Assembly (NCBI GenBank): GCA_021847165.1
Contig: JAJZUH010000028.1
Location: forward strand, 2,646-16,514
Source: Pseudomonadota bacterium
GTDB taxonomy: Bacteria; Pseudomonadota; Gammaproteobacteria; Burkholderiales; Gallionellaceae
Length of the DNA: 13,869 nt
Direction: 5' to 3'
Shown: in pieces, positions 405 through 13,586 of the stretch
Layout of the letters: every line of letters starts with the position of its first letter
Numbering within the stretch: the first letter of the stretch is position 1
The notes under the pieces: model-generated
What the model saw: the letters and a program-made list of their open reading frames with translations, nothing else
What the model was told of the DNA's origin: nothing
Databases searched by the model: none
Translations under genes and position numbers: made by a program

Positions 405-1091
405 ATGTCCCCCAAACTCCGCATCGTCGTAGCCACCCGAGAATCCAAGGAAGACTTCCTGTTCAAGACCGCCCTGGGCAAATCTTTGGCGGTTTACAAC
501 TATCCGCATATCGAGATTGCACTATTCGAGAGAAACAAGAGCGGACTGCCCGCCGTTTACAATCAGGCAATCGATGCTGCCAGACAGGATCCCGCAATAC
601 TGGTCTTTGTGCACGACGATGTCTATTTGTGCGGTTTCAACTGGCCGAATGAAGTCGCCGAAGGCCTTGAACACTTCCATATCCTCGGACTGGCAGGAAA
701 CAAGCGAAGGTCCCCCATGCAACCAGCCTGGGCCTTCATCGATACCAAATTTACTTGGGACACACGAGACAATTTGAGTGGCATCGTTGGGCATGGCAAA
801 GGTTTTCCTCCCACAATCCTGAGTCAGTTCGGCCCTCCGCGCCAAGAGGTGAAGCTGCTGGATGGCCTGTTCCTGGCCTGCCATAGCACCACCCTGCAAA
901 AGCACGACCTGAGATTCGACGAGCGTTTCAACTTTCACTTCTACGACATGGATTTCTGCCGTCAGGCAGAAATCGCAGGACTTCTGATGGGGACATGGCC
1001 GATATCGACTGTACATGAAAGCCCTGGCAACTTCGGCACGGAAGTCTGGCTAACAGCTTATTCGAAATATCTCGAGAAGTGGAAAAGCTAG
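405..1091 (+). CDS. Small glycosyltransferase-like protein (GT-A fold, Glyco_tranf_2_5-like)
   Basis: A 228-residue protein resembling single-domain GT-A glycosyltransferases of the Glyco_tranf_2_5 type. It has a beta-strand start (LRIVVATRE), a sugar-nucleotide-binding-like segment SGLPAVYNQAID at about 46-57, and a HDDV motif at 70-73 that takes the place of the metal-binding DXD. LLDGLFLAC is at about 151-159. A FYDMDFC segment at 179-185 and H204 (TVHES) match the usual catalytic/metal acid and histidine positions. No signal peptide or membrane segment is visible, so it should act in the cytoplasm. The ATG at 405 has no clear Shine-Dalgarno; an in-frame GTG further upstream is cut off by a TAA, so this is the first usable start. 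It is the only island gene on the plus strand and converges with the GT2-TPR gene across 27 bases. Donor and acceptor are unknown. Confidence 0.78.
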   Translation: MSPKLRIVVATRESKEDFLFKTALGKSLAVYNYPHIEIALFERNKSGLPAVYNQAIDAARQDPAILVFVHDDVYLCGFNWPNEVAEGLEHFHILGLAGNKRRSPMQPAWAFIDTKFTWDTRDNLSGIVGHGKGFPPTILSQFGPPRQEVKLLDGLFLACHSTTLQKHDLRFDERFNFHFYDMDFCRQAEIAGLLMGTWPISTVHESPGNFGTEVWLTAYSKYLEKWKS

Positions 1092-1118: not shown

Positions 1119-2675
1119 CTAAATCGCCCTGATATCCGCAACCAGTTTTTCCCATGCACTCGGCGGGATCGGGTTGATATTCGACAAGACATCGCGCACA
1201 AAGGCCAGAACCGCCGCATCGCTCGGCTGCTCTCGCAGTATGCCTCCCCACACACTTAGAGCGCCTTCGATATTGCCTGTCGCCAACAGCATAGCGGCAT
1301 AGTTTCGCGCAGTTACGCCTGCAGTTCCCTCCAGCATCATGCCCTTCTCGAAGCAGGGAACTGCCTTGGCAAAATCGCCATCATTGAAATACTGAACACC
1401 AAGATCGTTGTATACATCCCAACAAGTACTGTCCTTATCCGCCAATTCGATCAGAGGCGTTTTGCTTTCCTGTATCTGCCCGGCCTCCAATAGCCTAGAC
1501 ACCTGTTCATATGCACGGCGATCCTCCAGACGCTCGCTTCTGTTCTGTGAAGCCTGTACAGGAGATGAATGACATGATGTGCCTACAGCTTGCATCTGTT
1601 GCGCAAACTCTTCGAGTTGCGTTTTTTGCGCACCAATGAGTGCATCTCGGCTTGCAATATGCCTCCCCAATTCGACAACCGCCTCAAGATGAAACAAATC
1701 ATGTTTCCCAGTCAGAGCGGTAAAGTCACGGAAACTGAATTGATACAACTCCATGATCCTTTGTTTGACATCTGAATCAGACATCAAGTCAAACAATGTT
1801 TCGATTCCCAGCATTTTCCCCCATGGCTGGGAAGCTTCACTCACGGCCATCATCGCCAAAACAAACTGAGGTACGCAGCCCTCGCCACGACGGTATGGCT
1901 CTGCCTCTGGAAAAATGGCCACCAGCTCATCAAAAGTACCAATACGCAGATAATTCTTGAGGATGTAATGGAACTCTGAACGCGAGCGTATGCGCACCTC
2001 AGGTCGGCTACCGCTAGCATTCATCTCCGCATCGCGCACGCGGTAGCGGGTCAACCGCTCGGGAAGCACATGTATTTCGTACTTGAAACACAGGCGCACC
2101 CACAAATCAAAATCGGTCAATTGTGCAAGCGAATCCTGATACAGCCCGCACTCCTCATAGCAGAGCTTGCGTATCAGCACACTGGGATGACAGAGCGCAT
2201 TGCCGTAAAAAAAGAAGCGCCTGAGCCATTGTTGGCGCGAGCGATTAGGCTGGTTGAATATGTTTGAGTAAATATGTGACTGATCAGCCAGTGGCTCGCT
2301 TCTCTCATCGATGGCCAGGGTGTTGGTGAATACCGCCCCTAGGGCGGGATTGGCATCAAGAACAGCAACCTGCTTCTGCAGCTTGTCCAGTTCCCACACA
2401 TCGTCCGAGTGATGAATGGCAATATATTCGCCTGTTGCGACCTCGGTGATCGCCTTGTTCACCCCGAACACGCCGCCGATGTTCTTCTCGTTTCGAAACG
2501 CCTTGATGCGCGGATCGGAGTAACGCTGAATCAGTTCCCATGAATTGTCTGAAGAACCATCATCCCAGATGATGAGCTCGAAATCGGCATAGGTCTGTTT
2601 GAGCGTATTCTCAATGGATTCGCAGATGAATTTTGCATGGTTATACGAGGAGAGGATAACGGATACTTTGGGCAT
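1119..2675 (-). CDS. GT2 family glycosyltransferase with C-terminal TPR-like region
   Basis: A 518-residue protein. Residues about 4-215 form a GT2 (GT-A) domain: it opens with VSVILSSYNHA, has the nucleotide-binding DDGSSDNS at 38-45, SDD at 90-92 as the DXD-equivalent metal site, and TDFD at 187-190 as the likely catalytic acid region. The middle (about 215-390) is helical and unrecognised. Residues about 395-518 look like degenerate TPR helices (VYNDLGVQYFNDGDFAKAV, then a second unit). It would transfer a sugar from a nucleotide donor in the cytoplasm; the TPR part may bind a protein acceptor. I chose the ATG at 2675 because the fold begins right there. An in-frame GTG at 2723 would add 16 hydrophilic residues and sit only 8 bases after the upstream stop; neither start has a strong Shine-Dalgarno. 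It is the last gene of the minus-strand operon. Confidence 0.88.
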   Translation of the reverse strand: MPKVSVILSSYNHAKFICESIENTLKQTYADFELIIWDDGSSDNSWELIQRYSDPRIKAFRNEKNIGGVFGVNKAITEVATGEYIAIHHSDDVWELDKLQKQVAVLDANPALGAVFTNTLAIDERSEPLADQSHIYSNIFNQPNRSRQQWLRRFFFYGNALCHPSVLIRKLCYEECGLYQDSLAQLTDFDLWVRLCFKYEIHVLPERLTRYRVRDAEMNASGSRPEVRIRSRSEFHYILKNYLRIGTFDELVAIFPEAEPYRRGEGCVPQFVLAMMAVSEASQPWGKMLGIETLFDLMSDSDVKQRIMELYQFSFRDFTALTGKHDLFHLEAVVELGRHIASRDALIGAQKTQLEEFAQQMQAVGTSCHSSPVQASQNRSERLEDRRAYEQVSRLLEAGQIQESKTPLIELADKDSTCWDVYNDLGVQYFNDGDFAKAVPCFEKGMMLEGTAGVTARNYAAMLLATGNIEGALSVWGGILREQPSDAAVLAFVRDVLSNINPIPPSAWEKLVADIRAI

Positions 2676-2731
2676 ATTCTGTGTTCGCTCTGGTTCTGGT
2701 TGATATGTATCGCGCTCTTGCACGGCGATAT

Positions 2732-3559
2732 TCAGGTCTTGCCGGCAGGTCTGAATATCGCCGCGATCTGCTCCGGCACTGGGAAATCCGCAACGTATTG
2801 TTCGCGATGCACCGTGCGCTCGTAAGCCGTCGGATAGCAGCGCGCGACGTAAGTCTGCTCGGCTGCATTGTCGAACCGGGTAGAGGCTGCAAGGCGCAAG
2901 CGTCCTGGCGTCCCATGTGTCGAGGTGCGATGTATGGTGAACATGGACATGAAGATGACATCGCCCACTTCGACCTCGGCCGGGATGAAATCCTCTTCGC
3001 GGTACTGGTCCGGTGCCACCTCGCGCACGGCATTGCCCTCGCCCCGCATGGGCAGCAGGCCGCGTTTGTGGCTGCCCGGTATCACTTCCAGCGGAAAGTT
3101 GTCCTTGTCCACATCAACCAGCGGCAGCCACACCACCACCCCATCCAGGCTGCCCTGCACTGAGGGAAAATCCTGGTGCGTCACCAGACCAAAATAGCCG
3201 TCCGGGATCTTCAGTTCGTGAGCCATGATATGCACCACCTGCCCGCCCGGGACGAAGATATCCCCCCAGCCGAACTTGTCATGCAGGAAAGCGATGATGC
3301 GTGGATCGTGCATCAGCTGGAACACGTCGAGCTTGCGCCAGAGTGCGGCAGCCACTTTCTTGTACTTGCCGGTATCATGTTGATAGAGCGCCTGCATCGC
3401 AGCAAAAGTATCTTCCCCACCCATGCCAGGTTGTCCATGCCGCGCATCCCAAAAAGTCCGCGCTATGGAATGCACGACGCACTGGATGCCCTGCTTGTCC
3501 AGCAAGCCCTTCGCAACAACGAATCCGTCAGCCTTGAACTTCTCCAGTTCCAAGCTCAT
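2732..3559 (-). CDS. Phytanoyl-CoA dioxygenase (PhyH) family Fe(II)/2-oxoglutarate oxygenase
   Basis: A 275-residue protein of the PhyH family, non-heme iron enzymes that couple 2-oxoglutarate decarboxylation to substrate hydroxylation. The facial triad is visible: H128 and D130 in THQDFPS, and the distal H210 in MFTIHRTS. R220 or R222 in the GRLRLAASTRFD segment is the expected 2-oxoglutarate carboxylate ligand. The N-terminus (FKADGFVVAKGLLD) is typical of the family, and the length is normal. The ATG at 3559 overlaps the upstream stop as ATGA, so longer in-frame starts inside the neighbouring gene are rejected. In this operon it most plausibly hydroxylates a sugar, an acyl group on a sugar, or a side chain of the glycosylated protein. 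The substrate is inferred from context only. Confidence 0.88.
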   Translation of the reverse strand: MSLELEKFKADGFVVAKGLLDKQGIQCVVHSIARTFWDARHGQPGMGGEDTFAAMQALYQHDTGKYKKVAAALWRKLDVFQLMHDPRIIAFLHDKFGWGDIFVPGGQVVHIMAHELKIPDGYFGLVTHQDFPSVQGSLDGVVVWLPLVDVDKDNFPLEVIPGSHKRGLLPMRGEGNAVREVAPDQYREEDFIPAEVEVGDVIFMSMFTIHRTSTHGTPGRLRLAASTRFDNAAEQTYVARCYPTAYERTVHREQYVADFPVPEQIAAIFRPAGKT

Positions 3560-4509
3560 CCCACACCTCCCGTCCATTCGGCGTAACCGAACCCGGACTG
3601 CCCGAAACCATTGCCGTTGTAGAACATGTAGCGCCGCCCGCCGACGTCCACCACCTCCGGGTAGGCCTGCATGAACGAGTCCCACCCTGCGGCACTCGGC
3701 GTTATCCCGGCGCGATCATCCATGCGGGTCCACGCCAGGCCATCGCCCGATTCAGCATAACCAATACGGTAGCTGCCCGCCTGGTTGGTGCGGTAATCGA
3801 CATGACTGCGATAGCTGTACCACATGCGATAGAGCGCTCCATCCTTGCGCACACTGGCACGCACGATACCGCCTTCGGCGGGATGAGCATAATCGATAGC
3901 CACGCGCCCCTCCCGACACCAGTGGATGCCATCGTCCGACTCGGCATACTTGAGATGATAGCGCGGCTCCATGCGTCCGCCGATCGATTCCCAGCCGGTA
4001 CAGGACAGATACCAGTTGCGCCAGATGCCATTCTCGATGCGGACGCAGGTCGTCGCGCAGAAATGCGGCTCTTCCGCAGTGCGCTCCATGACCGGTCCGT
4101 CGAACATACGGCGGTAGATACGCCCGCCGTCCTCGCTCACTGCCAATCCCACCGAGTTGTGGTAGGGCACGGTGTTGCGCACGTTCCAGCCGATGTAATA
4201 CAGATACTTCACTCCCTGCCAGTCGACCACCGAGGACGGCATCATGCCGCAGTCGTCGAAGGTGCCCGGCGCGCCGAGTTGCAATATCGGCTCCGGCTGG
4301 ATTCCGAGGATACGCGAAGGATCGCGCGCATCCACTTCCATCCGGGTGATCAGGCTGCGGTTCGCTTCGTCGCGGCTACTGAAGAATATCCGCAATCGTT
4401 GTTCATCCAGCACATCCACCGTGGGAATCTGGGCATGGCTGCGCGCCCACGGCAGACGTTCGTCCACCGCATAGATCAGACCGCACTTGCGCCAGCCGGG
4501 CGAGGTCAT
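3556..4509 (-). CDS. Five-bladed beta-propeller protein, GH43/GH32-like, function unknown
   Basis: A 317-residue soluble protein whose repeat pattern fits the five-bladed propeller of the GH43/GH32/GH68/GH130 group. Blade-like units are visible: RLRIFFSSRDEANRS, YLYYIGWNV with GLAVSEDGGRIYRR, YAESDDGIHWCREG, YRMWYSYRSH with GYAESGDGLAWTRM, and YMFYNGNGFG near the end. Three of them carry an S/E-x-DG-x-x-W/Y signature. No secretion signal is seen, so it should be cytoplasmic, which is unusual for a polysaccharide-degrading hydrolase. The start ATG (4509) overlaps the FkbM stop by ATGA and its own stop overlaps the PhyH start by ATGA, which suggests translational coupling of the three. It could be a glycosidase, a phosphorylase, a sugar-binding propeller or a transferase; I cannot assign catalytic acids with confidence. 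Confidence 0.78.
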   Translation of the reverse strand: MTSPGWRKCGLIYAVDERLPWARSHAQIPTVDVLDEQRLRIFFSSRDEANRSLITRMEVDARDPSRILGIQPEPILQLGAPGTFDDCGMMPSSVVDWQGVKYLYYIGWNVRNTVPYHNSVGLAVSEDGGRIYRRMFDGPVMERTAEEPHFCATTCVRIENGIWRNWYLSCTGWESIGGRMEPRYHLKYAESDDGIHWCREGRVAIDYAHPAEGGIVRASVRKDGALYRMWYSYRSHVDYRTNQAGSYRIGYAESGDGLAWTRMDDRAGITPSAAGWDSFMQAYPEVVDVGGRRYMFYNGNGFGQSGFGYAEWTGGVG

Positions 4510-5312
4510 GTGCCCGCCTTTTTTTCAAAGATGCAGTTGTACAGACCGGCATAATTCTGCACTTGTTGCTTGCTCGCTATGGCAAAGCCACGCTGCGCAA
4601 AGAAGTTTTGCGCGAACTCCTTCAGGAAACTCTCCGTCAGCTCGATGAACACCGAACGCACCTTCTTCAGGCACTCCTCCGCCCCCGCCAGCACTTCGGC
4701 CTCGGCACCATCAACATCGATCTTCAGATAGGCCGGTTGCGGCAACTTCATGATGCCGACCAGTTCATCGAGCGAGCATTTCAACACCGGATGCGAATAC
4801 TCCGGCAGGAATGTGTGCCCGAAGACATCCTGCGCCTTGTCCAGTATCTTCTCGTGCCCCCCCAGTTCCATGCGCTTGATGTGCATGCGGCCCACGCCCA
4901 TTGTCTCGGAAACCGCAAGGTTGTAGCAGCCTTCCAGCGCAACGCCGTTCGCACTCGCGTTGAGATAATTGTTGTAGGACAGCAGGAAATAATTGGCCGG
5001 GTCGGGCTCGATGGCGATCACGCGCAGGCCGCAAGCCACCGCATACATAGCGAAGATGCCGTTGCTCGCCCCGATGTCGTACATCACCGCGCCTTGCGGA
5101 ATAGAGTCTATCCAATCCAGCAATTCCGGCTCGATGTGCTCATGGCCACAGGCCATCCACAACAACCGGCGTGACAGGCAGAGCCAGTCCAGCCTCTTCC
5201 CGCGCACCGTGGTACTGTGCCTGAACTTCTCCAGATCGAAGCCATCGGCCAGTTGCAGCTGTTCTGCGCTGACCAGCATTTCCAAGGGAACAAACTTTCG
5301 TCTTGTCGTCAT
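4506..5312 (-). CDS. FkbM family SAM-dependent methyltransferase
   Basis: A 268-residue class I methyltransferase of the FkbM type, which usually O-methylates sugars or polyketides. SAM-binding motif I is VMYDIGASNGIFAMYA at about 76-91, followed by the acidic motif IEPDP at 101-105. The FkbM hallmark LKIDVDGAE is at about 196-204. About 70 residues precede motif I and may help bind the acceptor. I chose the ATG at 5312, 25 bases past the upstream stop. The alternative in-frame start at 5366 is a TTG inside the GT61 gene and adds 18 basic residues. No strong Shine-Dalgarno is present, so translation may depend on coupling. Placed between a glycosyltransferase and the propeller/PhyH pair, it likely methylates a sugar hydroxyl of the finished or growing glycan. 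Confidence 0.88.
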   Translation of the reverse strand: MTTRRKFVPLEMLVSAEQLQLADGFDLEKFRHSTTVRGKRLDWLCLSRRLLWMACGHEHIEPELLDWIDSIPQGAVMYDIGASNGIFAMYAVACGLRVIAIEPDPANYFLLSYNNYLNASANGVALEGCYNLAVSETMGVGRMHIKRMELGGHEKILDKAQDVFGHTFLPEYSHPVLKCSLDELVGIMKLPQPAYLKIDVDGAEAEVLAGAEECLKKVRSVFIELTESFLKEFAQNFFAQRGFAIASKQQVQNYAGLYNCIFEKKAGT

Positions 5313-5337
5313 CTGTCGGCAGTCCCGTAATATGCGT

Positions 5338-7242
5338 TCACGCAGTCGCGCCTGCCAGATGCGCAAGCTGCGGTATGTAATCGACCATCAGGTTTACCGA
5401 CCTCTCCAGCTCATCCACATCGACCAGCAAATCGTCATTCAATTCGGCCGGAGAAAACTTGGGCAAACCATGCGCATCCGCTGCCTTGCACAGCAAATGG
5501 AAATGCACCAAGCCATTGTTGTTGCAGATAGACCAGAATGAGTCAGTTGCAAAGTCCTCCTGGTAAAGGATCAGCGCCTTGGCACCTTCGTTGCACAACA
5601 TCAGATTGGAAAAGCCCGCCCCGGCAGGTCCGACGACCATTTCCGCACAGGAGAATAATGCGCGCTTCTCCTGCAAGCTCAACGACTCCAGGCAATGGGA
5701 TTCGAAACCGTACCTTTCCAGCAATGCCTTCACTGCCGCGTTATTGGCAACTTTTCGGTAGCGAGCGTTTTCTCGATCAATATATATCCTTCTTTTCGTT
5801 TTACCGTCGCAAGTCAAAGCATAGGCCCGGTGGAGCCCCTGCGATATCCAGGGCTCGATAAGAATGCTAGGAAGCGGCCGGCCGAAGTCGTAATTCACCG
5901 GACTGGACGTGAAGAGCAACTTGCTTGCCTTCAGGTGGGGCATTGATCGCCATTCCGCGACTCGCTCGAGCCGTATACCCAGCACTTCCAGGAATTCCAT
6001 GAGATGAGGCAACTTACGGTCCACCAGGAACAGGTCCACATCTTCCAGCCGATAGCCGGCCTGGAGCACCAGCAGCAACCTGGGCAACATTTCCAGCACC
6101 CAGTGAAAATACTCGCTCCCCCACACCCCGCAAAGCGGCATCACGGTTCCGTCAAATGTCTGCACGGGGGGCAGTTTCGCGCGATCCGCAAGGGCAAAAA
6201 GTACACCATCACCCCAGCACACATCATTTACAAAATGATCATCTGCATCAAATACAGCAAAGCCTTGGTAGCCAATACACAGGCGTGCATCACTCAGCGC
6301 GACTACCGAGTGTTGCCTTATCACTGCCTGTTTGCCGCTCAGGCTTGGCACCTTGGATTGCTTGCAGGACAAGGAGTCGAAATAGACAAACCCAGAGGAC
6401 AATCCATCCAACCGGGTAACTTTGCAAAACGCAGAGGATTCCAGCGTTGAGATATCAACCTGTTTGCCCACCTTGGCAAGAAATCTTTCTCTGCCCAGCG
6501 CTTCAACACTGCATTCCACCTTGAACAGGTCTATACGATTTTTGTCGTGGATATTGCCGAACCGAACCGATGAGCCATCAGATTCCCGTCCTGGCCAGCT
6601 TGCAAACAAGCCACTAAAGGCTTCAACCAAGGGGGCGGTCGAAACAAAAGGGTTCCTGATGAAATAATCGACAAACGAATCCAGTGTCTTATGCACCAGA
6701 TCGGCAGGCAGTGGCTCCAGTTGAATACCCAGTTTTTTCAGTACTTCCAGCAGCCTGCTAAAGGCGTCCGCATGGCCTGAATCTGTAGCAATGGCCTTGT
6801 TATAACAGTCGAGCGACTCTGTCAGCTTTCCCTGATCCTGAAACAAGCTGCCAAGGTTGTAATAAGCCTCGGCATAGCCTGAATTGAGAAGCACCGTATT
6901 CTGGTAACAGATGATTGCCTCATCTCGCATACCCAATTTTTTGAGCGTATTCCCCAAGTTGAAGTGCGCCTGCGCAAAATTTTGCGCGATCCCGATCACG
7001 CCACCGAACAATTCTGCGGCTACCTCATACATGCCCGCCTCATAAGCTATCACTCCCAACATGTGCAGCACATCGGGATGGTTCGGCTCCGCTGCAAGCA
7101 TCTGATGACAGAGGACCTCGGCCTCAATCAGCCGCCCTGCCTGAAGATGTTGCGAAGCAAGATCAAAGGCCTCGGCAATCGGAACAGGTTTGATTTGATC
7201 TTCGGACAAAATTACCTCGTCATCGTCACATATCGTCTTCAC
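5338..7242 (-). CDS. TPR-GT61 (DUF563) glycosyltransferase
   Basis: About 634 residues. Residues about 25-175 form four TPR units (AEVLCHQMLAAEPNHPDVLH; AQAHFNLGNTLKKLGMRDEA; AEAYYNLGSLFQDQGKLTES; and a flanking one). Residues about 310-610 match the GT61/DUF563 domain: FHWVLEMLPR at 379-388, RRIYIDR at 484-490, and VVGPAGAGFSN at 536-546. GT61 enzymes transfer xylose, GlcNAc or other sugars in plant, animal and bacterial systems. TPRs fused to a GT resemble the arrangement of cytoplasmic protein glycosyltransferases, so a protein acceptor is plausible (inference). The start is uncertain. GTG at 7242 is just past the upstream stop (7256) but has no Shine-Dalgarno; TTG at 7209 has a GAGG five bases upstream and would drop 11 residues. 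Longer forms run into the acyltransferase gene and are rejected. Confidence 0.87.
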   Translation of the reverse strand: MKTICDDDEVILSEDQIKPVPIAEAFDLASQHLQAGRLIEAEVLCHQMLAAEPNHPDVLHMLGVIAYEAGMYEVAAELFGGVIGIAQNFAQAHFNLGNTLKKLGMRDEAIICYQNTVLLNSGYAEAYYNLGSLFQDQGKLTESLDCYNKAIATDSGHADAFSRLLEVLKKLGIQLEPLPADLVHKTLDSFVDYFIRNPFVSTAPLVEAFSGLFASWPGRESDGSSVRFGNIHDKNRIDLFKVECSVEALGRERFLAKVGKQVDISTLESSAFCKVTRLDGLSSGFVYFDSLSCKQSKVPSLSGKQAVIRQHSVVALSDARLCIGYQGFAVFDADDHFVNDVCWGDGVLFALADRAKLPPVQTFDGTVMPLCGVWGSEYFHWVLEMLPRLLLVLQAGYRLEDVDLFLVDRKLPHLMEFLEVLGIRLERVAEWRSMPHLKASKLLFTSSPVNYDFGRPLPSILIEPWISQGLHRAYALTCDGKTKRRIYIDRENARYRKVANNAAVKALLERYGFESHCLESLSLQEKRALFSCAEMVVGPAGAGFSNLMLCNEGAKALILYQEDFATDSFWSICNNNGLVHFHLLCKAADAHGLPKFSPAELNDDLLVDVDELERSVNLMVDYIPQLAHLAGATA

Positions 7243-7255
7243 AGCAGCCAACCAG

Positions 7256-7915
7256 CTACATCCTGATCTTGGTGCTCGGCATGGCCAACTTCTCGGCTGG
7301 ATTGCCCTTGTACGCCCCCCACGCCTCGGTGTCATGCATCACTGCTGCAGCCATCGCCACGAAGGTTCCCTCGGCGATCTTCAGGCCGTCACGCAGGGTC
7401 GAGTTCACTCCGAAGAAGCTATACGCCCCGATCTCGCAATGCCCTGACATGACCACATGCGAAGTGAACATCACATGATCATGGATCACGCCGTGGTGGC
7501 CGATGTGGTTACCGCTCCACAGCACCACGTTGTTGCCGATCTTTGTGAACGGCTGGATGGTATTGTCTTCCAGGATGAAACAGTTGTCGCCAATCTCGTT
7601 GCCGAACAGCGTCGCCTTGCTGCTCACGTAACTGATGCAGCCGTAGCCCTTGGCCTTGATGGCGTTGTACACTTGCTCGCGGTCGCGGTTCATGTTCTTC
7701 GGCGCCATGGGGGCAAAGAACATGTGCCCGCGAGGTGGGAACGCTTTTTCCACTTCCTCGAACGGCACCACCGGCAAGCCACGGAACATACCACCCTCGG
7801 GCAGGTAGTCGCGATTGACGCTGAAGGCGGCCACCTCATGTGGCGAGTCGTGCTCAAGATAGAAGTGTGCCAATTCTGCAAAATCCTTGACGCCGAAGAT
7901 CACGACCTTAGCCAT
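7256..7915 (-). CDS. NeuD/PglD-like sugar O- or N-acyltransferase (left-handed beta-helix)
   Basis: A 219-residue protein with the two-part NeuD/PglD layout. The N-terminal Rossmann-like domain (AKVVIFGVKDFAELA, then GLPVVPFEEVEKAF) normally holds the nucleotide sugar. The C-terminal left-handed beta-helix of hexapeptide repeats (ATLFGNEIGDNCFI, TKIGNNVVLWSGNHIG, CEIGAYSFFGV) binds acyl-CoA. The histidine-rich turn HIGHHGVIHDH at about 137-147 includes the position of the catalytic base in PglD-type enzymes. The length is normal. The ATG at 7915 is fixed by a full TAAGGAGG six bases upstream, the best ribosome site in the island, and overlaps the preceding gene by 8 bases. Next to an aminotransferase it most likely acylates the new amino group of a nucleotide-linked sugar; the acyl group could be other than acetyl. 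Confidence 0.86.
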   Translation of the reverse strand: MAKVVIFGVKDFAELAHFYLEHDSPHEVAAFSVNRDYLPEGGMFRGLPVVPFEEVEKAFPPRGHMFFAPMAPKNMNRDREQVYNAIKAKGYGCISYVSSKATLFGNEIGDNCFILEDNTIQPFTKIGNNVVLWSGNHIGHHGVIHDHVMFTSHVVMSGHCEIGAYSFFGVNSTLRDGLKIAEGTFVAMAAAVMHDTEAWGAYKGNPAEKLAMPSTKIRM

Positions 7916-8549
7916 GGATCGCCTCCTTATAGACATAGACGGTGTATTCATACAGACCATAGTCGTTGCGGATCACGAAATGGCGCGACAGTTCTTTCGT
8001 CAGGAAGGCGATGAGCGGATCGGCAGGTAAATGAAACAGGTCGTCCCGTTCCCAGTCGACTGCCTTGGACATGACATTGAAAGCCAGCCCGCGCCGCACC
8101 TTGGGGAATACGGTACGCAGCACGCGCTTGAAATATTCGAACATTTCGTCGAACGTGAGTTCGCGTTTCTCGGTAAACACCCCGTTCATCACCACGTAAT
8201 CGAATTTACCCAGCTGCTCCGGCGCTTCCAGCACGTCCAGACAGGCAAAGTCGACCTGCGGAAACTTGCTGCGCGACAGTTCGCAAAAGGCGGGCGAGGC
8301 ATCCAGCCCATGGTATTCCAACGCCGCAAAGCGGCTGTTCAGCAGGTAGGGATAGAGGTGCGAGGCGCCGCAGCCGAAGTCGAGCAGCGTCAACCCCATG
8401 CAATCTTCGCGCACTACTTCCAGCATCACGCGATAGCGCTTCTCGACATCGCGCTGGTTGGGCCAGTCCACGCCCAGGTGCGTATCGCCGTGGCGCTCCA
8501 GGCAGTCCTCGTAATGCTCAATGATGGCGGTGTACTTGTGCGCACTCAT
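7908..8549 (-). CDS. Class I SAM-dependent methyltransferase
   Basis: A 213-residue methyltransferase. Motif I is LTLLDFGCGASHLYPYL at about 53-69, with the ribose-binding acidic motif HGLDASPAF at about 80-88. DFACLDVLEAP follows at about 100-110 and a motif IV-like KFDYVVMNGVFTEKRE at about 115-130. It lacks signal or membrane segments. The ATG at 8549 overlaps the WbqC stop as ATGA, so the two are likely translationally coupled, and a GGAGA lies upstream. Its place between WbqC and the NeuD-like acyltransferase suggests it modifies the same amino sugar or its acyl substituent. O- versus N-methylation cannot be told from the sequence. Confidence 0.87.
   Translation of the reverse strand: MSAHKYTAIIEHYEDCLERHGDTHLGVDWPNQRDVEKRYRVMLEVVREDCMGLTLLDFGCGASHLYPYLLNSRFAALEYHGLDASPAFCELSRSKFPQVDFACLDVLEAPEQLGKFDYVVMNGVFTEKRELTFDEMFEYFKRVLRTVFPKVRRGLAFNVMSKAVDWERDDLFHLPADPLIAFLTKELSRHFVIRNDYGLYEYTVYVYKEAIHG
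7922..7929 (-). promoter_or_regulatory. Strong ribosome binding site of the NeuD-like acyltransferase
   Basis: The minus strand reads TAAGGAGG, six bases before the ATG at 7915 and inside the last codons of the preceding methyltransferase gene. It rules out the longer in-frame start at 7960. It is clearly stronger than the other ribosome sites in the operon. Confidence 0.85.
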
Positions 8550-9247
8550 GTCAGGTCCATCTCCCCGAGCAGCAGCCGCGCCTGTGGCTGCGGGTTGAAC
8601 ATCAATACGTCCAGGATGGATAGCCAGGGCACGAACTCCCCGCCGCCCTGAGCGTAGCTCAACGGCCAGGAACGCAGGAACTTCAACTCTATGCCCTGCT
8701 CGCTGAAGCGAGCGCGGTCATACAGCGCTTCCCCGCCGATGGCATTGACGTAGCGCTGTGCGCTTTCCTGCCGGCAAATGTCGAGGATGCGTTCCTGCCC
8801 GCGCAGTTGCGCGTTGCCGTAGATGCGCGAGCTGCCCACGATCTCCGTTCCCAGCGCAAGATAATGTGCAATTTCGCGCAGGCTGTTTAGCAGGAACTCG
8901 TCCAGCCGGCGCACTGGATGACGGATGATACGTTCCATCAGCGCCGACACATCCGCATAGCACGGCGCCTTCGCATAGGCCTGCCGGATGGTGCGCAACA
9001 GCTTGTCGCGCCAGCCATCGTCGTCCATCAGTTCGATATCGCAGATCAGCTTGTTTTGGCTCGCGCCGCGCAGCGGCACCGTAAACGTATGTGCAGCCCC
9101 ATCGAGCAGGAGGCGATTGCGGTTCACCCAGCCGCGATTGATGTAATGAACATCGTCGAACACCACGAACTTATCTACCGCCGCCATCAACTGGAAATAT
9201 CCGATATAGGGCAGGAAATAGGGTTGCATGATGGCAATGGTCTTCAT
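8546..9247 (-). CDS. WbqC family protein
   Basis: A 233-residue protein with the hallmark WbqC N-terminus: IAIMQPYFLPYIGYFQL at about 4-20, DKFVVFDDVHYINRGW at about 25-40, then NRNRLLLDG and a strand region leading to VPL. The family occurs in O-antigen and other surface-glycan clusters, commonly next to DegT aminotransferases; its biochemical role is not settled as far as I know. The conserved His/Asp/Asn/Arg set in the N-terminal third looks enzyme-like. It lies 8 bases after the aminotransferase stop and overlaps the next methyltransferase start, so it belongs to the same amino-sugar module. An acyl- or aminoacyl-transfer role on the amino sugar is a possibility suggested by context only. 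Confidence 0.9.
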   Translation of the reverse strand: MKTIAIMQPYFLPYIGYFQLMAAVDKFVVFDDVHYINRGWVNRNRLLLDGAAHTFTVPLRGASQNKLICDIELMDDDGWRDKLLRTIRQAYAKAPCYADVSALMERIIRHPVRRLDEFLLNSLREIAHYLALGTEIVGSSRIYGNAQLRGQERILDICRQESAQRYVNAIGGEALYDRARFSEQGIELKFLRSWPLSYAQGGGEFVPWLSILDVLMFNPQPQARLLLGEMDLT

Positions 9248-9255
9248 GCGCCAGC

Positions 9256-10368
9256 TTATCCCGCGATCAGCCCGACCACCGAATCTACCTGCTCATCTGA
9301 CAGTCCGGGATAGATCGGCAGACAGAGGATCTCGCTGGCAGCCTGGCTCGCCACGCCAAGGTTGGATCGCGCTGCGGAGGGCAATCCGCGATACATAGGA
9401 AAATCGCTGATCAGCGGATAAAAATAGCGGCGTGCAATGACGTTGTGCTCGCGCAGCTTCTGGTACAACTCGTCGCGATTCAATGGGTAGCCAGGCTGCA
9501 CCAGGATGGGAAAATAGGCGTAATTGGACACATCTTCATGGACGGCCGAGAAACAGCGTATCCCCTTCACTCCGGCAAAAGCCTTGCGATAGCGGGCATC
9601 GATGACCCTGCGCTGTTGCAATGCCGCATCAATCCCCTTGAGTTGCAACAAGCCCAATGCCGCGTTGAATTCGCTCATCTTGCCGTTGATGCCGGGAGCA
9701 ACCACCGTCACCTCGTCGACGAAGCCGAAATTCTTCAGGTGGTCGATGCGTTGCTTGGTCTTGGCATCCGGCGAGACGATAGCCCCGCCTTCGAAGGTAT
9801 TGAACACCTTGGTCGCATGAAAACTCAGCACCGACAGGTCGCCATAATTCAGCAGGCTGCCGGAATGGTACTGGACGCCGAACGCATGCGCAGCATCGTA
9901 GATGACCCTCAGGTTGTAGTTGTCCGCGATCTTCTGGATAGCGTCCACATCGCAGGGATGTCCATACACATGCACCGCCAGGATGGCCGTAGTCGACGGG
10001 GTGATGGCAGCCTCAACCTTTGTCGGGTCAAGATTAAGGGTATCCGGATCGATATCGACGAAGACCGGCTTGATGCCGTTCCAGAGCAGCGAATGTGCGG
10101 TGGCCACAAAAGAATATGGCGTCGTGATCACCTCGCCGGTGATGCGCAGGGCTTGCAGCGCGGTGACCAGGCCGATGGTGCCATTGGTAAACAGTGAGAT
10201 GTATTTGACGCCCAGGTATTCGCACAGCGCGCGTTCCAACTGCTGATGAAAGGAGCCACCGTTGGTAAGTATCCTGCTATCCCATATCTGCTGCAGATAG
10301 GGAAGGAATTCCTCCAGTGGCGGCAGCACCGGCTTTGTCACATAGATGGGCTCTTTCGACTGTGTCAT
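9256..10368 (-). CDS. DegT/DnrJ/EryC1/StrS family sugar aminotransferase (VioA-like)
   Basis: A 370-residue PLP enzyme that converts a keto sugar nucleotide to an amino sugar. The Schiff-base lysine is K187 in SFHATKVFNTFEGG, and D158 in IYDAAHAFGV is the pyridine-nitrogen partner. The phosphate-binding TNGT is at 61-64 and ITTPYSFVAT at 81-90. The opening YVTKPVLPPLEEF and the overall pattern resemble VioA-type enzymes that make dTDP-4-amino-4,6-dideoxyglucose. The exact sugar cannot be proved here, and no RmlA/RmlB partner is in the window. The ATG at 10368 overlaps the stop of the fusion gene as ATGA and has GGTGAG just upstream; the extra 85 codons of open frame lie inside the neighbour and look non-native. 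It is the first committed sugar-building enzyme in the operon. Confidence 0.92.
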   Translation of the reverse strand: MTQSKEPIYVTKPVLPPLEEFLPYLQQIWDSRILTNGGSFHQQLERALCEYLGVKYISLFTNGTIGLVTALQALRITGEVITTPYSFVATAHSLLWNGIKPVFVDIDPDTLNLDPTKVEAAITPSTTAILAVHVYGHPCDVDAIQKIADNYNLRVIYDAAHAFGVQYHSGSLLNYGDLSVLSFHATKVFNTFEGGAIVSPDAKTKQRIDHLKNFGFVDEVTVVAPGINGKMSEFNAALGLLQLKGIDAALQQRRVIDARYRKAFAGVKGIRCFSAVHEDVSNYAYFPILVQPGYPLNRDELYQKLREHNVIARRYFYPLISDFPMYRGLPSAARSNLGVASQAASEILCLPIYPGLSDEQVDSVVGLIAG

Positions 10369-13184
10369 TTGCTCACCACATACAGGATGCTTGTGTGCGT
10401 CAGCCCCAGCGAGCGGAATACCTCCTCCCCGAAATATTCTTCCCCCAGTTCGTCCACACGGAAACCGTGGCTGCGGATCTTGTTCACATAATCGCCATGC
10501 GCGTAGAGCCTGACATGATCGTCTTGCCCATACAGCCTCCAGCGGCCTGCCGCGTCTCTCACGCTCGGGTCTTCCACCGTCTTTTCCAGCCCCACGATGA
10601 TGGGCGCCACAAGAATGCCACACCCGCCAGGCTTGGTGATTCTGTACAGTTCCCTGATCGCCTGGTCGTCGCTCTCCACATGCTCAAGCACATGGCTGCA
10701 TATGAAAAAATCGTAACTCGCATCGGCAAATGGCAGGTTCTGGAGATCGACCTTGTAGTCGACGTGCCCCATACCGAAATCTGCAGTCTCGTAATCGGCG
10801 AACAACAGTCTAAGCCTTTTCGACAGCGCTTCCTCGGGAGCGAAGTGCATAACGCGGGCAGAACGACTTAATGCCCCCTTCTTCTGCTGTTGATCCACCC
10901 ACAACGCATAGAGGCGTTCCCGGTCAGATGCTCCACAGTGATTGCACGTGTATTGCTCCAGCGAGATCATCTCGCCTTTGCCAAAATGGGCAAATCCATG
11001 AAGACGCGAATTTTCGCGGTAAAGTTCTGGAAGAGGCAAAAAGGAGACTTGATCGCTGCCGCAAACAGGGCAACAGGATTGCGGCTGTCCTGCCATGCCA
11101 GCTGGCTCCCCGCGCAGGTTCGCTTCCAAGACATCCACATCATCGCCGCTTAGCCCATGTTGCTTGGCCAAAGCCAGGATATCGCGCGCAACCTGCATCT
11201 GTCCCGCCTGATGCAGGGCATCGATGTAACTCAACCAGTATTGCCCTCGTGCCGGATCAGCCTGCAGCGCAGCCACGAAATAGGGCAACCCATCGGCGGG
11301 CCGATTTGACTGGACCGCCAGTACGCCAAGATTATGATTCGCCTCTGGATGGTCCGGAACAATCTTCAGTATCTCGCGATAAAGGCGCCCAGCCTCCTCC
11401 AATTTTCCTGCTTGATGAAAATCTACTGCTTGCTGCAACAACTGATCCGGCGTCGGCGATATAACCTCGGCCTTTGGCTTCATCCAGAGGCCGATATGCC
11501 CCTTGATCGGCTTGCCGTGCTCAGTGCGGATATCGGTAGCCGTCATTTCTATTACCAGAAACCCATTTTCAGATGCCAGTCGTTCCAGGTATTTGACAGA
11601 CTGGCCATAGCGACCGGTGTTCTTCAACTGGTAATCCGGGGAATCGCCCTGAATATCCCCGTCAAGCTGGACTTCGCAATCCTCGACAGAGAACGCGAAC
11701 AGCCCGCCCTGCCGCAGCAGCCTTTTGACTTCCGCGATCACGTCATCAAGCTTGCCTAGATAGATGAACACATCGGCCGTCGCAATCACATCGAAACTCG
11801 ATGTCGGCTCGGCTTGCATCATCGGCAACAGATCGGACCTTACCAGCCGCTGGTACAAATTTCGCGCTTGCGCTCGTTCCAGCATTTTCTCGGACAGGTC
11901 CACCCCCACCAAACTGCCTGCCAATGGCGCGAACTCAACCCCCACCAGGCCTGTCCCGCATCCCAGATCGAGGACATCGCATTTTGTCGCAGGCAGCAAA
12001 TGGCGCTGAACCATCTGCGCCAGCTTGGCGGGGACGCCATACTGAAGCGCTTGCTGCAAATGGGTATCGAAACTATCCGCGTAGCTGTCGAACACATCTT
12101 CGACATATTTGGCGGGAGCACGCTCGGTATTCTTACCGGTCAGGGAGGCAATCAAGTGCTGATCCACCGCATTCCCGGGCATCAATCTGGCGCGCGACTG
12201 GAAATGCGCTAATGCTTCAGTCAGGCGTCCCATGGATTGCAAGACGACGCCCAGGTTACCGTGGGCTGCGGCAAAATCGGGTTTGAGCTCCAGCGCTCGA
12301 CGATAGCTCTTCTCGGCCTCTTCATGCCTACCGAGAGCCTGCAAGGCAACACCCATGTTAAGAAGTGCGTCTGCATTCTTCGGATTTAGCTTCAATGCAT
12401 GGTCTAAATTGGCCACAGCCTCATTCGACCGGCCGAGATCCTGAAGATTGCCCCCCAGATTGCTGTATGCCTCGGCGTCATTCGGCAATAATTCAGCCGC
12501 TCTTTGCATGGGCGCCAGTGCTTCGGCATTCTTACCCAATTGCTTGAAAGCCGCTCCCAACACCTTCCAGCCGAAACCATACAGAGGGAAGCGTTGCACC
12601 ATTGTCTGCGCCAAGGTCACAGCTTCAGCACTGCGCCCTTGCGTGAAAAGGGCCATCAGCGCATCGATCTCCCCTTGGGCAGGTTTGCCCCCGGTTTTCC
12701 CCGCAGGCTTTACCTCCGGCTCTTCAGCAGATTTGGCCGTGGGGCTAGCCTCCCGCTGCAGTGCGACCGCGCGCCCTCGATGCTCCTCATCGGACGGCAT
12801 GTCAGCCTCCAGATGTGCCGCCAGCACATCAACGTCTTCGCCCTGCAATCCGCTCTGCCTCGCAAGCGCCAGCACCTGCCGCGCCGTTTCCGGCTGGCCG
12901 GCCTGGTACAAGGCATCGATATAGCTCAACCAGTATTGGCCATGGGCCGGATCGGCTTCCAGGGCGGCGGCGAAGAACGGCAGTCCGGCAGCCGGCTGCT
13001 GCTGCTGTACGTACAGCGCACCCAGATTGTGATTGGCCTTGGGATGATGCGGATCGCTCTGCAGGATGGCCCGATAGCCTTTCTCTGCTTCCTGCAGTTC
13101 GCCTGCCTGATGGTGCGCAACAGCCTGTCGCAACGCCTGTTCTATCGCCTGCATCCCGATTCCCGGTGAAATTCCAAGGGTCAT
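10365..13184 (-). CDS. TPR-methyltransferase-TPR-zinc ribbon-methyltransferase fusion
   Basis: A 939-residue multidomain protein. Order: TPR block 1 (about 17-127); a charged K/E/P/A-rich linker (128-170); TPR block 2 (about 171-345, units such as AEAYSNLGGNLQDLGRSNEA); methyltransferase 1 (about 355-568) with YVEDVFDSYADSFDTHL and motif I DVLDLGCGTGLVG, as in COG4976 TPR-methyltransferases; TPR block 3 (about 581-692), a copy of block 1; a zinc-ribbon pattern CPVC (705-708) with CNHC (747-750); and methyltransferase 2 (about 775-905). The last has HFAPEE in place of the usual glycine-rich motif I, then DLQNLPFADASYDFFICSHVLEHV and ITKPGG. It is likely cytoplasmic and may hold a protein or glycan substrate while methylating it (inference). 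It is the first gene of the operon, 75 bases after fliE. ATG 13184 was chosen; ATG 13154 is also possible. There is no sign of a frameshift, so the fusion appears genuine. Confidence 0.88.
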   Translation of the reverse strand: MTLGISPGIGMQAIEQALRQAVAHHQAGELQEAEKGYRAILQSDPHHPKANHNLGALYVQQQQPAAGLPFFAAALEADPAHGQYWLSYIDALYQAGQPETARQVLALARQSGLQGEDVDVLAAHLEADMPSDEEHRGRAVALQREASPTAKSAEEPEVKPAGKTGGKPAQGEIDALMALFTQGRSAEAVTLAQTMVQRFPLYGFGWKVLGAAFKQLGKNAEALAPMQRAAELLPNDAEAYSNLGGNLQDLGRSNEAVANLDHALKLNPKNADALLNMGVALQALGRHEEAEKSYRRALELKPDFAAAHGNLGVVLQSMGRLTEALAHFQSRARLMPGNAVDQHLIASLTGKNTERAPAKYVEDVFDSYADSFDTHLQQALQYGVPAKLAQMVQRHLLPATKCDVLDLGCGTGLVGVEFAPLAGSLVGVDLSEKMLERAQARNLYQRLVRSDLLPMMQAEPTSSFDVIATADVFIYLGKLDDVIAEVKRLLRQGGLFAFSVEDCEVQLDGDIQGDSPDYQLKNTGRYGQSVKYLERLASENGFLVIEMTATDIRTEHGKPIKGHIGLWMKPKAEVISPTPDQLLQQAVDFHQAGKLEEAGRLYREILKIVPDHPEANHNLGVLAVQSNRPADGLPYFVAALQADPARGQYWLSYIDALHQAGQMQVARDILALAKQHGLSGDDVDVLEANLRGEPAGMAGQPQSCCPVCGSDQVSFLPLPELYRENSRLHGFAHFGKGEMISLEQYTCNHCGASDRERLYALWVDQQQKKGALSRSARVMHFAPEEALSKRLRLLFADYETADFGMGHVDYKVDLQNLPFADASYDFFICSHVLEHVESDDQAIRELYRITKPGGCGILVAPIIVGLEKTVEDPSVRDAAGRWRLYGQDDHVRLYAHGDYVNKIRSHGFRVDELGEEYFGEEVFRSLGLTHTSILYVVSK
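11109..11444 (-). repeat. Internal duplication, copy 2 (TPR block, residues 581-692)
   Basis: The second copy sits directly ahead of the zinc ribbon and methyltransferase 2. The offset between copies is constant at 564 residues. This suggests that two genes, each of TPR-cap plus methyltransferase form, were duplicated and joined, or that a TPR cap was copied along with the second catalytic domain. Confidence 0.85.
12801..13136 (-). repeat. Internal duplication, copy 1 (TPR block, residues 17-128)
   Basis: This codes for residues 17-128 of the fusion protein and aligns without gaps to residues 581-692. Shared stretches include HQAG, ANHNLG, GQYWLSYIDAL and the DVDVL end. By hand count 73 of 110 positions are identical, far above ordinary TPR similarity, so this is a duplication and not just another TPR. 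Confidence 0.85.
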
Positions 13185-13259: not shown

Positions 13260-13586
13260 TCATACCTGCATGTTCATAATGTCGTTATAGGCCGCCGCCA
13301 CCTTGTTGCGTACCTGCACGGCCGTCTGGAACGAGATATTCGCCTTCTGCATGGCGATCATGGTATCACTCAGACTCACCTTGTCGTCGCCCAGCACAAA
13401 GGCTTTTTGCATGTCCTCCGCCTGGTGCTGGGCCTGATTGACACTGTCCAGGGAAGACTTCAACATGTCGGCGAAGTTCGCGCCTCCCGTCGCAGCTGGC
13501 GCCTGGAGCGGCTGGCCCTGCGCTGCGGCCATGGCCGCCCGCATCTGGCTCAACAGGCTGTCCACATTGGAAACATTCATGCTCAT
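13260..13586 (-). CDS. fliE: Flagellar hook-basal body complex protein FliE
   Basis: FliE, 108 residues, joins the MS ring (FliF) to the proximal rod and is exported early in flagellar assembly. The C-terminal half is highly typical: FADMLKSSLDSVN, then DDKVSLSDTMIAMQKANISF, then AVQVRNKVAAAYNDIMNMQV. The N-terminal half is an Ala/Gln-rich variable region. The ATG at 13586 is set by a GAAGGAGG sequence seven bases upstream; a second ATG two codons later is too close to use that site. It is divergent from fliF, as in enteric bacteria. The glycosylation operon follows on the same strand after 75 bases with no evident terminator, so read-through from fliE is possible. Confidence 0.96.
   Translation of the reverse strand: MSMNVSNVDSLLSQMRAAMAAAQGQPLQAPAATGGANFADMLKSSLDSVNQAQHQAEDMQKAFVLGDDKVSLSDTMIAMQKANISFQTAVQVRNKVAAAYNDIMNMQV

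What the first reader, a model, noticed from the sequence alone, without database searches (positions are those of the whole stretch)
10365..13184. Two-methyltransferase TPR fusion with an ungapped ~110-residue internal duplication
One 939-residue protein carries two methyltransferase domains of different subfamilies. Each is preceded by a copy of the same TPR cap (residues 17-127 and 581-691), which align without gaps at about two-thirds identity by hand count. The second domain also has a zinc ribbon. A conserved cap duplicated ahead of two different catalytic domains suggests the cap recognises one common substrate or partner. I know of single TPR-methyltransferases (COG4976) but not of this composite.
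Basis: partly seen in the sequence, partly recalled or inferred. Interest (0 to 1): 0.72.

Follow-up and report, generated by a model that had tools for sequence, protein, structure and literature searches.

The report
Flagellar methyltransferase pair with docking caps
A bacterial gene beside the flagellar gene fliE makes one protein with two different methyl-adding enzymes, each led by the same docking module that related bacteria also attach to other flagellum-decorating enzymes, and sequence mosaics suggest that enzymes are swapped behind this module.

Summary
It is not an assembly join: a single-contig 3.0-Mb genome carries the same fusion (71% identity), as do other database proteins.

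The cap is neither a generic TPR nor special to this protein. It is a ~115-residue, three-TPR module found in 39 of 158 family genomes, ahead of GT41 glycosyltransferases, several methyltransferases, sulfotransferases and a GT9 enzyme. 52 of 68 caps lie within 20 kb of fliE or a flagellin-family gene, against 4 of 38 cap-less GT41 ORFs (same contig only: 52/54 against 4/9).

Best reading: the cap docks cytoplasmic modifying enzymes onto flagellin, as the TPR domain of Caulobacter FlmG does, and this protein brings two methyltransferases to the glycan made by the genes downstream.

New here: effectors are exchanged behind the cap. Against Sideroxyarcus emersonii, nucleotide identity falls from 165/180 to 52/90 inside cap 2, where a GT41 domain replaces the second methyltransferase. 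A standalone relative is a cap1/cap2 mosaic switching at the same block. A general test of this rule was not significant. Flagellin binding, methylated group and activity of the second domain are inferred.

The parts
10365..13184 (-). 939-residue protein: cap1 - linker - TPR array - methyltransferase 1 - cap2 - Cys4 - methyltransferase 2
12801..13142 (-). cap 1 (residues 15-128), three TPR hairpins plus end helix
12909..12938 (-). conserved block QYWLSYIDAL of cap 1; mosaic P0121 switches from cap1-like to cap2-like within it
12138..12677 (-). further TPR array, residues 170-349
11475..12137 (-). methyltransferase 1 (MT1, residues 350-570), intact LDLGCGTGL motif I; relatives named 'predicted TPR repeat methyltransferase'
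   Evidence: dN/dS 0.14-0.22
11106..11447 (-). cap 2 (residues 580-693)
11214..11243 (-). conserved block QYWLSYIDAL of cap 2; nucleotide identity with S. emersonii drops right after it (14/15 and 12/15 in the block, then 8/15 and 6/15 per five codons)
10935..11072 (-). Cys4 motif (C705, C708, C747, C750), probable zinc ribbon
   Evidence: invariant in 38 of 38; positions
10368..11096 (-). methyltransferase 2 (MT2, residues 697-939) with HFAPE in place of a canonical GxGxG motif I; Pfam matches cover only its second half
   Evidence: dN/dS 0.07-0.11
13260..13586 (-). fliE, same strand, 75 nt upstream of the first ATG of the fusion gene (probable start near 13586)
   Evidence: PF02049 E 1.9e-30; start by eye
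9256..10368 (-). DegT-family sugar aminotransferase; its ATG overlaps the fusion gene's TGA (ATGA at 10365-10368); a relative is fused to a cap-GT41 protein in G008 and G027
8546..9247 (-). WbqC-like protein of the island
   Evidence: PF08889
7256..8549 (-). methyltransferase (7908-8549) and hexapeptide-repeat protein, probable acyltransferase (7256-7960), of the island
1119..7335 (-). rest of the island: TPR-GT61, FkbM methyltransferase, 3556-4509 (no Pfam match), PhyH dioxygenase, GT2
405..1091 (+). GT2-like glycosyltransferase of the island, opposite strand

Best explanation
The protein is a flagellin-modifying enzyme made of two cap-docked methyltransferase units joined head to tail. Each cap is a three-TPR docking module that holds a catalytic domain against one common partner, most likely flagellin before export (inferred from linkage and from FlmG). 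MT1 and MT2 then methylate two positions of the O-linked flagellin glycan (inferred). MT2 works with the sugar pathway of the same island (co-occurrence shown, chemistry inferred). The shared cap is also where effectors are exchanged: recombination inside the cap's conserved middle replaces the downstream enzyme and keeps the docking part (mosaics shown in sequence; the recombination event itself inferred).
For: Cap in 39 of 158 family genomes; flagellin-family genes in 39 of 39 of these against 77 of 119 cap-less ones (Fisher 1.2e-6), FliE 39 of 39 against 71 of 119. 52 of 68 caps within 20 kb of fliE or a flagellin-family gene; in 12 of 19 cap genomes of this genus a cap starts within 1.2 kb of fliE. 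Cap-less GT41 ORFs listed for the same genomes: 4 of 38 (Fisher 3e-11); counting only contigs that hold a marker, 52 of 54 against 4 of 9 (Fisher 3e-4). Other families of the order: 16 of 33 caps, at most about 1.4 expected. Precedent: FlmG's TPR domain, but not its GT domain, binds flagellins in two-hybrid (PMC7591256, passages); TPR repeats are also used in print as the mark of flagellin glycosyltransferases, and Maf-1's TPR domain is said to give flagellin specificity (PMC13317340, passages). Both methyltransferase domains are under purifying selection. All 4 MT2 genomes carry both island GT2 genes, 0 of 36 others in the stretches fetched. Effector exchange.
Against: No binding or activity was measured. 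16 of 68 caps have no marker within 20 kb; 14 of these lie on contigs without any marker, two such contigs being long (363,100 and 194,933 bases). Outside the family 17 of 33 caps are not within 20 kb, and two cap genomes (G058, G621) have neither a Flagellin_N nor a FliE match. MT2 lacks a canonical SAM motif I. A general test, whether the cap's C-half predicts the effector better than the N-half, was not significant (balanced accuracy 0.766 against 0.698; 22 against 16 discordant). The cap tree's bootstrap had not settled. Genomes are related, so the p-values overstate independence.
Confidence: 0.55

Rival explanations
1. The cap docks onto another component of the flagellar pathway (export gate, chaperone, or the glycosyltransferases of the island) and so assembles an enzyme complex, rather than binding flagellin.
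For: In 12 genomes a cap starts within 1.2 kb of fliE. Several different cap proteins co-occur in one locus, e.g. 6 caps each in G076 and G078, as expected of subunits of one complex.
Against: The direct precedent (FlmG) binds flagellin. Several caps lie beside flagellin-family genes (G073, G075, G091, G143, G664, G759).
Confidence: 0.22
2. The cap is only the folding end-piece of a TPR superhelix; its spread reflects gene duplication inside flagellar glycosylation islands and no shared partner.
For: In most cap proteins the cap precedes a longer TPR array. The cap tree is poorly resolved, and both cap halves partly predict effector type.
Against: It also sits directly on MT2 with no TPR array behind it (cap2 of the window and of G028, and G018, G029). 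Cap-less GT41 ORFs exist in the same genomes and most of those listed are not near flagellar genes. The cap is kept across at least six effector types.
Confidence: 0.15
3. One or both domains methylate flagellin side chains directly (lysine methylation) rather than the glycan.
For: Docking is equally compatible with a protein acceptor. Glycosylated flagellins of Aeromonas caviae and Shewanella oneidensis also carry methyl-lysines (PMC9290775, passages). MT1 has a weak match to PF10294, 'lysine methyltransferase' (21.1 bits, cut-off 21), behind stronger generic matches.
Against: No FliB family among the Pfam matches of either domain (12 and 6 families, all shown). MT2 co-occurs with the island's GT2 genes. 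The best fold matches of MT2 include RebM and AtmM, recalled as sugar O-methyltransferases (TM only 0.4-0.5).
Confidence: 0.1

Closest known systems
FlmG, Caulobacter flagellin O-glycosyltransferase (PMC7591256)
   Same: Cytoplasmic, modular: N-terminal TPR docking part plus C-terminal enzyme, acting on flagellins. The cap-GT41 relatives of the window's protein have the same layout.
   Different: FlmG has one TPR domain and a glycosyltransferase; here are two caps and two methyltransferases, no glycosyltransferase. Whether FlmG's TPR part is homologous to the cap was not tested.
'Predicted TPR repeat methyltransferase' (that this is COG4976 is recalled)
   Same: Residues 1-570 match about 600-residue proteins that JGI names so (P0011, P0014, P0016).
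   Different: The window adds a second cap plus a different, Cys4 methyltransferase.
Standalone Cys4 (zinc-ribbon) methyltransferases of about 257 aa and cap-MT2 proteins of about 345-420 aa
   Same: MT2 is up to 77% identical to the standalone form (P0140) and 92% to that of cap-MT2 protein P0121.
   Different: Here it is joined behind cap-TPR-MT1.
Proteins with constant N-terminus and exchanged C-terminal effector (polymorphic toxins such as CDI/Rhs; recalled, no call)
   Same: Constant delivery part, effector replaced by recombination at its end.
   Different: Effectors here are flagellum-modifying enzymes, not toxins, and presumably stay in the cell.

Membership tests
FlmG-type flagellin glycosyltransferase | N-terminal TPR domain | tested here: met
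FlmG-type flagellin glycosyltransferase | C-terminal glycosyltransferase domain | tested here: not met
   only methyltransferase families in MT1 (12 Pfam families) and MT2 (6), all shown; the rest is TPR. Cap relatives do carry GT41
FlmG-type flagellin glycosyltransferase | TPR domain binds flagellin | not testable with these tools
   only genomic linkage available
TPR methyltransferase (COG4976, name recalled) | TPR repeats followed by class I methyltransferase with GxGxG motif I | tested here: met
   LDLGCGTGL in MT1
Zinc-ribbon methyltransferase (MT2 type) | two CxxC pairs plus methyltransferase fold | tested here: met
   38 of 38 aligned keep C9, C12, C51, C54; fold; zinc binding itself not tested
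FliB flagellin N-methylase | FliB family match | tested here: not met
   not among the 12 and 6 Pfam families of MT1 and MT2, nor among the NCBIfam matches shown (25 of 33 and 16 of 16)

The most novel reading that the evidence does not exclude
The cap defines a flagellar cassette system: a constant docking module behind which recombination swaps, stacks and deletes catalytic domains (GT41, MT1, MT2, other methyltransferases, sulfotransferases, GT9, aminotransferase fusions). The flagellum's chemical surface is thereby re-equipped, possibly under pressure from phages or predators, much as constant-N/variable-C effector systems diversify.
Probability: 0.35. Interest if true: 0.75.

Novelty: new variant of a known kind. 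Interest (0 to 1): 0.6.

Why it matters
How modifying enzymes find flagellin and not other proteins is worked out for few systems (FlmG, Maf). A portable cap shared by several enzyme types predicts one binding site on flagellin and gives a small (~115 aa) testable docking tag. The mosaics suggest how bacteria could change flagellar decoration in one recombination step.

Tried and rejected
Assembly join: rejected (single-contig genome G028; the database cluster that stands for the window's own protein, P0001 at 99% identity, has a contig of 288,634 bases). Generic TPR: rejected within the family, but at order level the match E-values run continuously from 6e-49 to 6e-13, so the boundary blurs with distance; the HMM was trained on caps from the same loci. 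Recent tandem duplication: rejected (third-position identity 43/111). General claim that the cap's C-half travels with the effector: tested, not significant. P0121 as a plain deletion product of the two caps: possible, but the MT1 tree groups the window's MT1 with three proteins whose partner is GT41 (G004, P0008, P0009; support 86/80), so a P0121-like gene may equally be the donor of MT2. Full-length fold search was dominated by TPR proteins. The cap-less control is weak in part: 11 of its 38 ORFs come from one genome (G143) and 29 of 38 lie on contigs without a marker; hence the same-contig count. Paper searches (open-licence library only, listings seen) showed no title on this cap or its swaps; I looked at passages of three papers and at no whole text. 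On the second check I raised the side-chain rival from 0.08 to 0.1.

Full report
WHAT IS THERE. The gene at 10365-13184 is on the minus strand and codes for 939 residues. Order of parts: cap1 (15-128), low-confidence linker (130-164), TPR array (170-349), methyltransferase MT1 (350-570), cap2 (580-693), Cys4 segment and methyltransferase MT2 (697-939). Third codon positions agree at only 43/111, so the duplication is old. fliE ends 75 nt upstream on the same strand; the fusion's TGA overlaps the ATG of a DegT aminotransferase (ATGA). Farther on come WbqC, a methyltransferase, a hexapeptide-repeat protein, TPR-GT61, FkbM, PhyH and GT2 genes. Just outside the window, at the other end of the 16,514-base contig, lies a further cap protein with GT41. 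I read this as a flagellar glycosylation island of a Gallionellaceae genome; the family name rests on the names of the nearest proteins and my knowledge of where those genera belong.

NOT AN ARTEFACT. G028, a single contig of 3,003,656 bases, carries the same fusion (932-aa open frame, 71%). P0006, named Sideroxydans lithotrophicus, shows the same domain identities and is probably the same protein with a later start; that G028 is strain ES-1 is my recollection of its genome size. P0005 and P0007 are two further full-length forms. dN/dS is 0.14-0.22 for MT1 (two comparisons) and 0.07-0.11 for MT2 (three), so both domains are maintained.

THE CAP IS A SHARED MODULE. A 115-residue query found 68 caps in 39 of 158 family genomes, in 3 of 15 genera. 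An HMM on 3,655 ORFs of the fetched loci gave 68 hits at 113 bits or more and nothing between 113 and 45. The 68 caps lie in 64 proteins. By C-terminal clustering: 42 in one cluster, 41 of which match a GT41 query (the other is cut by the fetched stretch); 4 MT2; 4 another methyltransferase; 2 GT41 plus DegT; 2 GT9-like; 2 sulfotransferase; and 8 single proteins, namely one MT1, one further sulfotransferase, one SGNH-like (by eye only) and five not placed there (cut or masked; two of them match GT41). Pfam was run on six of these proteins. With 240 database proteins added, double-cap pairs include MT1+MT2 (4 distinct proteins), MT1+GT41 (P0003=G004, P0008, P0009) and MT1 with a second MT1-like domain (P0002, P0004). 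G073 carries a 1971-aa open frame with FkbM, cap, methyltransferase, cap and GT9 directly upstream of a flagellin-family gene. Outside the family the cap is patchy: 27 of 399 order genomes (three of them family members) and 2 of 369 class genomes (one the window's own) at E 1e-12.

FLAGELLAR LINKAGE. 54 of 68 caps are on a contig with fliE or a Flagellin_N gene; 52 are within 20 kb (at most about 5% expected at random). 33 of 39 genomes have at least one such cap. Of 38 cap-less GT41 ORFs listed for the same genomes (the listing was cut; the G022 and G033 pieces were dropped), 4 are within 20 kb. Many of those ORFs are on small contigs with no marker; counting only contigs with a marker it is 52 of 54 against 4 of 9 (Fisher 3e-4). 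Outside the family 16 of 33 caps in 15 of 24 genomes are within 20 kb, at most 1.4 expected; G058 and G621 have neither flagellin-family gene nor FliE. Flagellin_N also detects FlgL, so 'flagellin-family' is meant broadly. The precedent is FlmG: its TPR domain binds flagellins and its GT domain does not (PMC7591256; passages only). TPR repeats as a mark of flagellin glycosyltransferases are already in print (PMC13317340; passages only).

EFFECTOR EXCHANGE. In the cap tree the window's cap2 pairs with cap2 of G004 (100/98; the bootstrap had not settled) although the next domain is MT2 in one and GT41 in the other. G004's 2,738,141-base contig equals that of P0003, named Sideroxyarcus emersonii. 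At nucleotide level the two cap2 copies share 165/180 before the QYWLSYIDAL block and 52/90 after it (Fisher 1.8e-10); cap1 shows no such fall (160/180, 78/90; p 0.69). Per five codons the count is 14/15 and 12/15 in the block and 8/15 and 6/15 right after it, with some lower values (10/15 to 13/15) already in the 25 codons before it. Of 2,211 cap pairs, 16 have a left half at 0.80 or more, and this is the only one of them with a right half under 0.70, the next lowest being 0.71 and 0.73. P0121, a 364-aa cap-MT2 protein, differs in which cap it follows: of 46 informative sites matching either cap, the first 27 of 27 match cap1, then 17 of 19 match cap2, the switch falling within the same block (0 of 5,000 permutations as extreme). 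Only its protein sequence was seen. Adjacent gene pairs in G130 and G105 have long stretches of cap and TPR that are 97-100% identical at nucleotide level (in G130 interrupted by a linker at 56-65%), followed by catalytic parts at roughly 34-64%. The MT1 tree needs 6 partner changes at least, and starred branches force 3 for GT41. Against a general rule: the half-cap prediction test was not significant.

HOW IT PROBABLY WORKS. Docking to flagellin is inferred. MT1 has an intact SAM motif; its closest solved relatives by sequence include METTL27 and, weakly, amino-sugar N,N-dimethyltransferases; it also has a borderline match to PF10294, named lysine methyltransferase. MT2 has HFAPE instead of GxGxG, invariant in the 38 aligned relatives, so its SAM use is inferred from fold (RebM, MitM, SpnF, AtmM). 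All 4 genomes with cap-borne MT2 (G000, G028, G018, G029) have both island GT2 genes; 0 of 36 others have both in the stretches read (G091 has one; G024 and G030 have weak matches to the other), and G004, where GT41 stands in the place of MT2, shows none of the sugar cassette in its 20-kb stretch. MT1 shows no such tie (G004 and G097 have MT1 without the cassette). So MT2 probably methylates a sugar made by this cassette, and MT1 a more widespread acceptor. Lysine methylation of flagellin is the main chemical alternative (PMC9290775; passages only).

VERDICT. Two ordinary enzyme families in an unusual, real arrangement; the finding of interest is the shared, exchangeable flagellar docking cap behind it.

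Noticed in passing
Genus g1 genomes: 15 of 16 cap genomes with an uncut flagellin-like frame have a short one (200-253 aa; e.g. 238 aa in G028, L103), G029 being the exception; 5 of 6 cap-less genomes of the genus whose frame was listed have about 500 aa or more. Lengths are open frames sorted by eye from FlgL-like hits; the other genus (g32) does not follow this.
   Followed up: partly
L053:10497-14138 and L054:10246-13887 (G008, G027): Cap-GT41 is fused to a DegT aminotransferase that is a separate, overlapping gene in the window: a sugar-making enzyme joined to a transferase.
   Followed up: partly
L071:9682-15118 (G130) and L057:13458-19006 (G105): Adjacent cap-GT41 genes with near-identical cap and TPR parts but divergent catalytic domains; gene conversion of the docking part or recent duplication with replacement.
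   Followed up: partly
window 3556-4509, minus strand: 317-aa ORF with no Pfam match, with relatives in the loci of G028, G090, G008, G014, G015, G032 and weakly G003; looks glycosidase-like by eye only.
   Followed up: no
P0144, P0154, P0176: MT2 also occurs fused to a sulfotransferase (581-595 aa) with no TPR among the listed Pfam domains.
   Followed up: no
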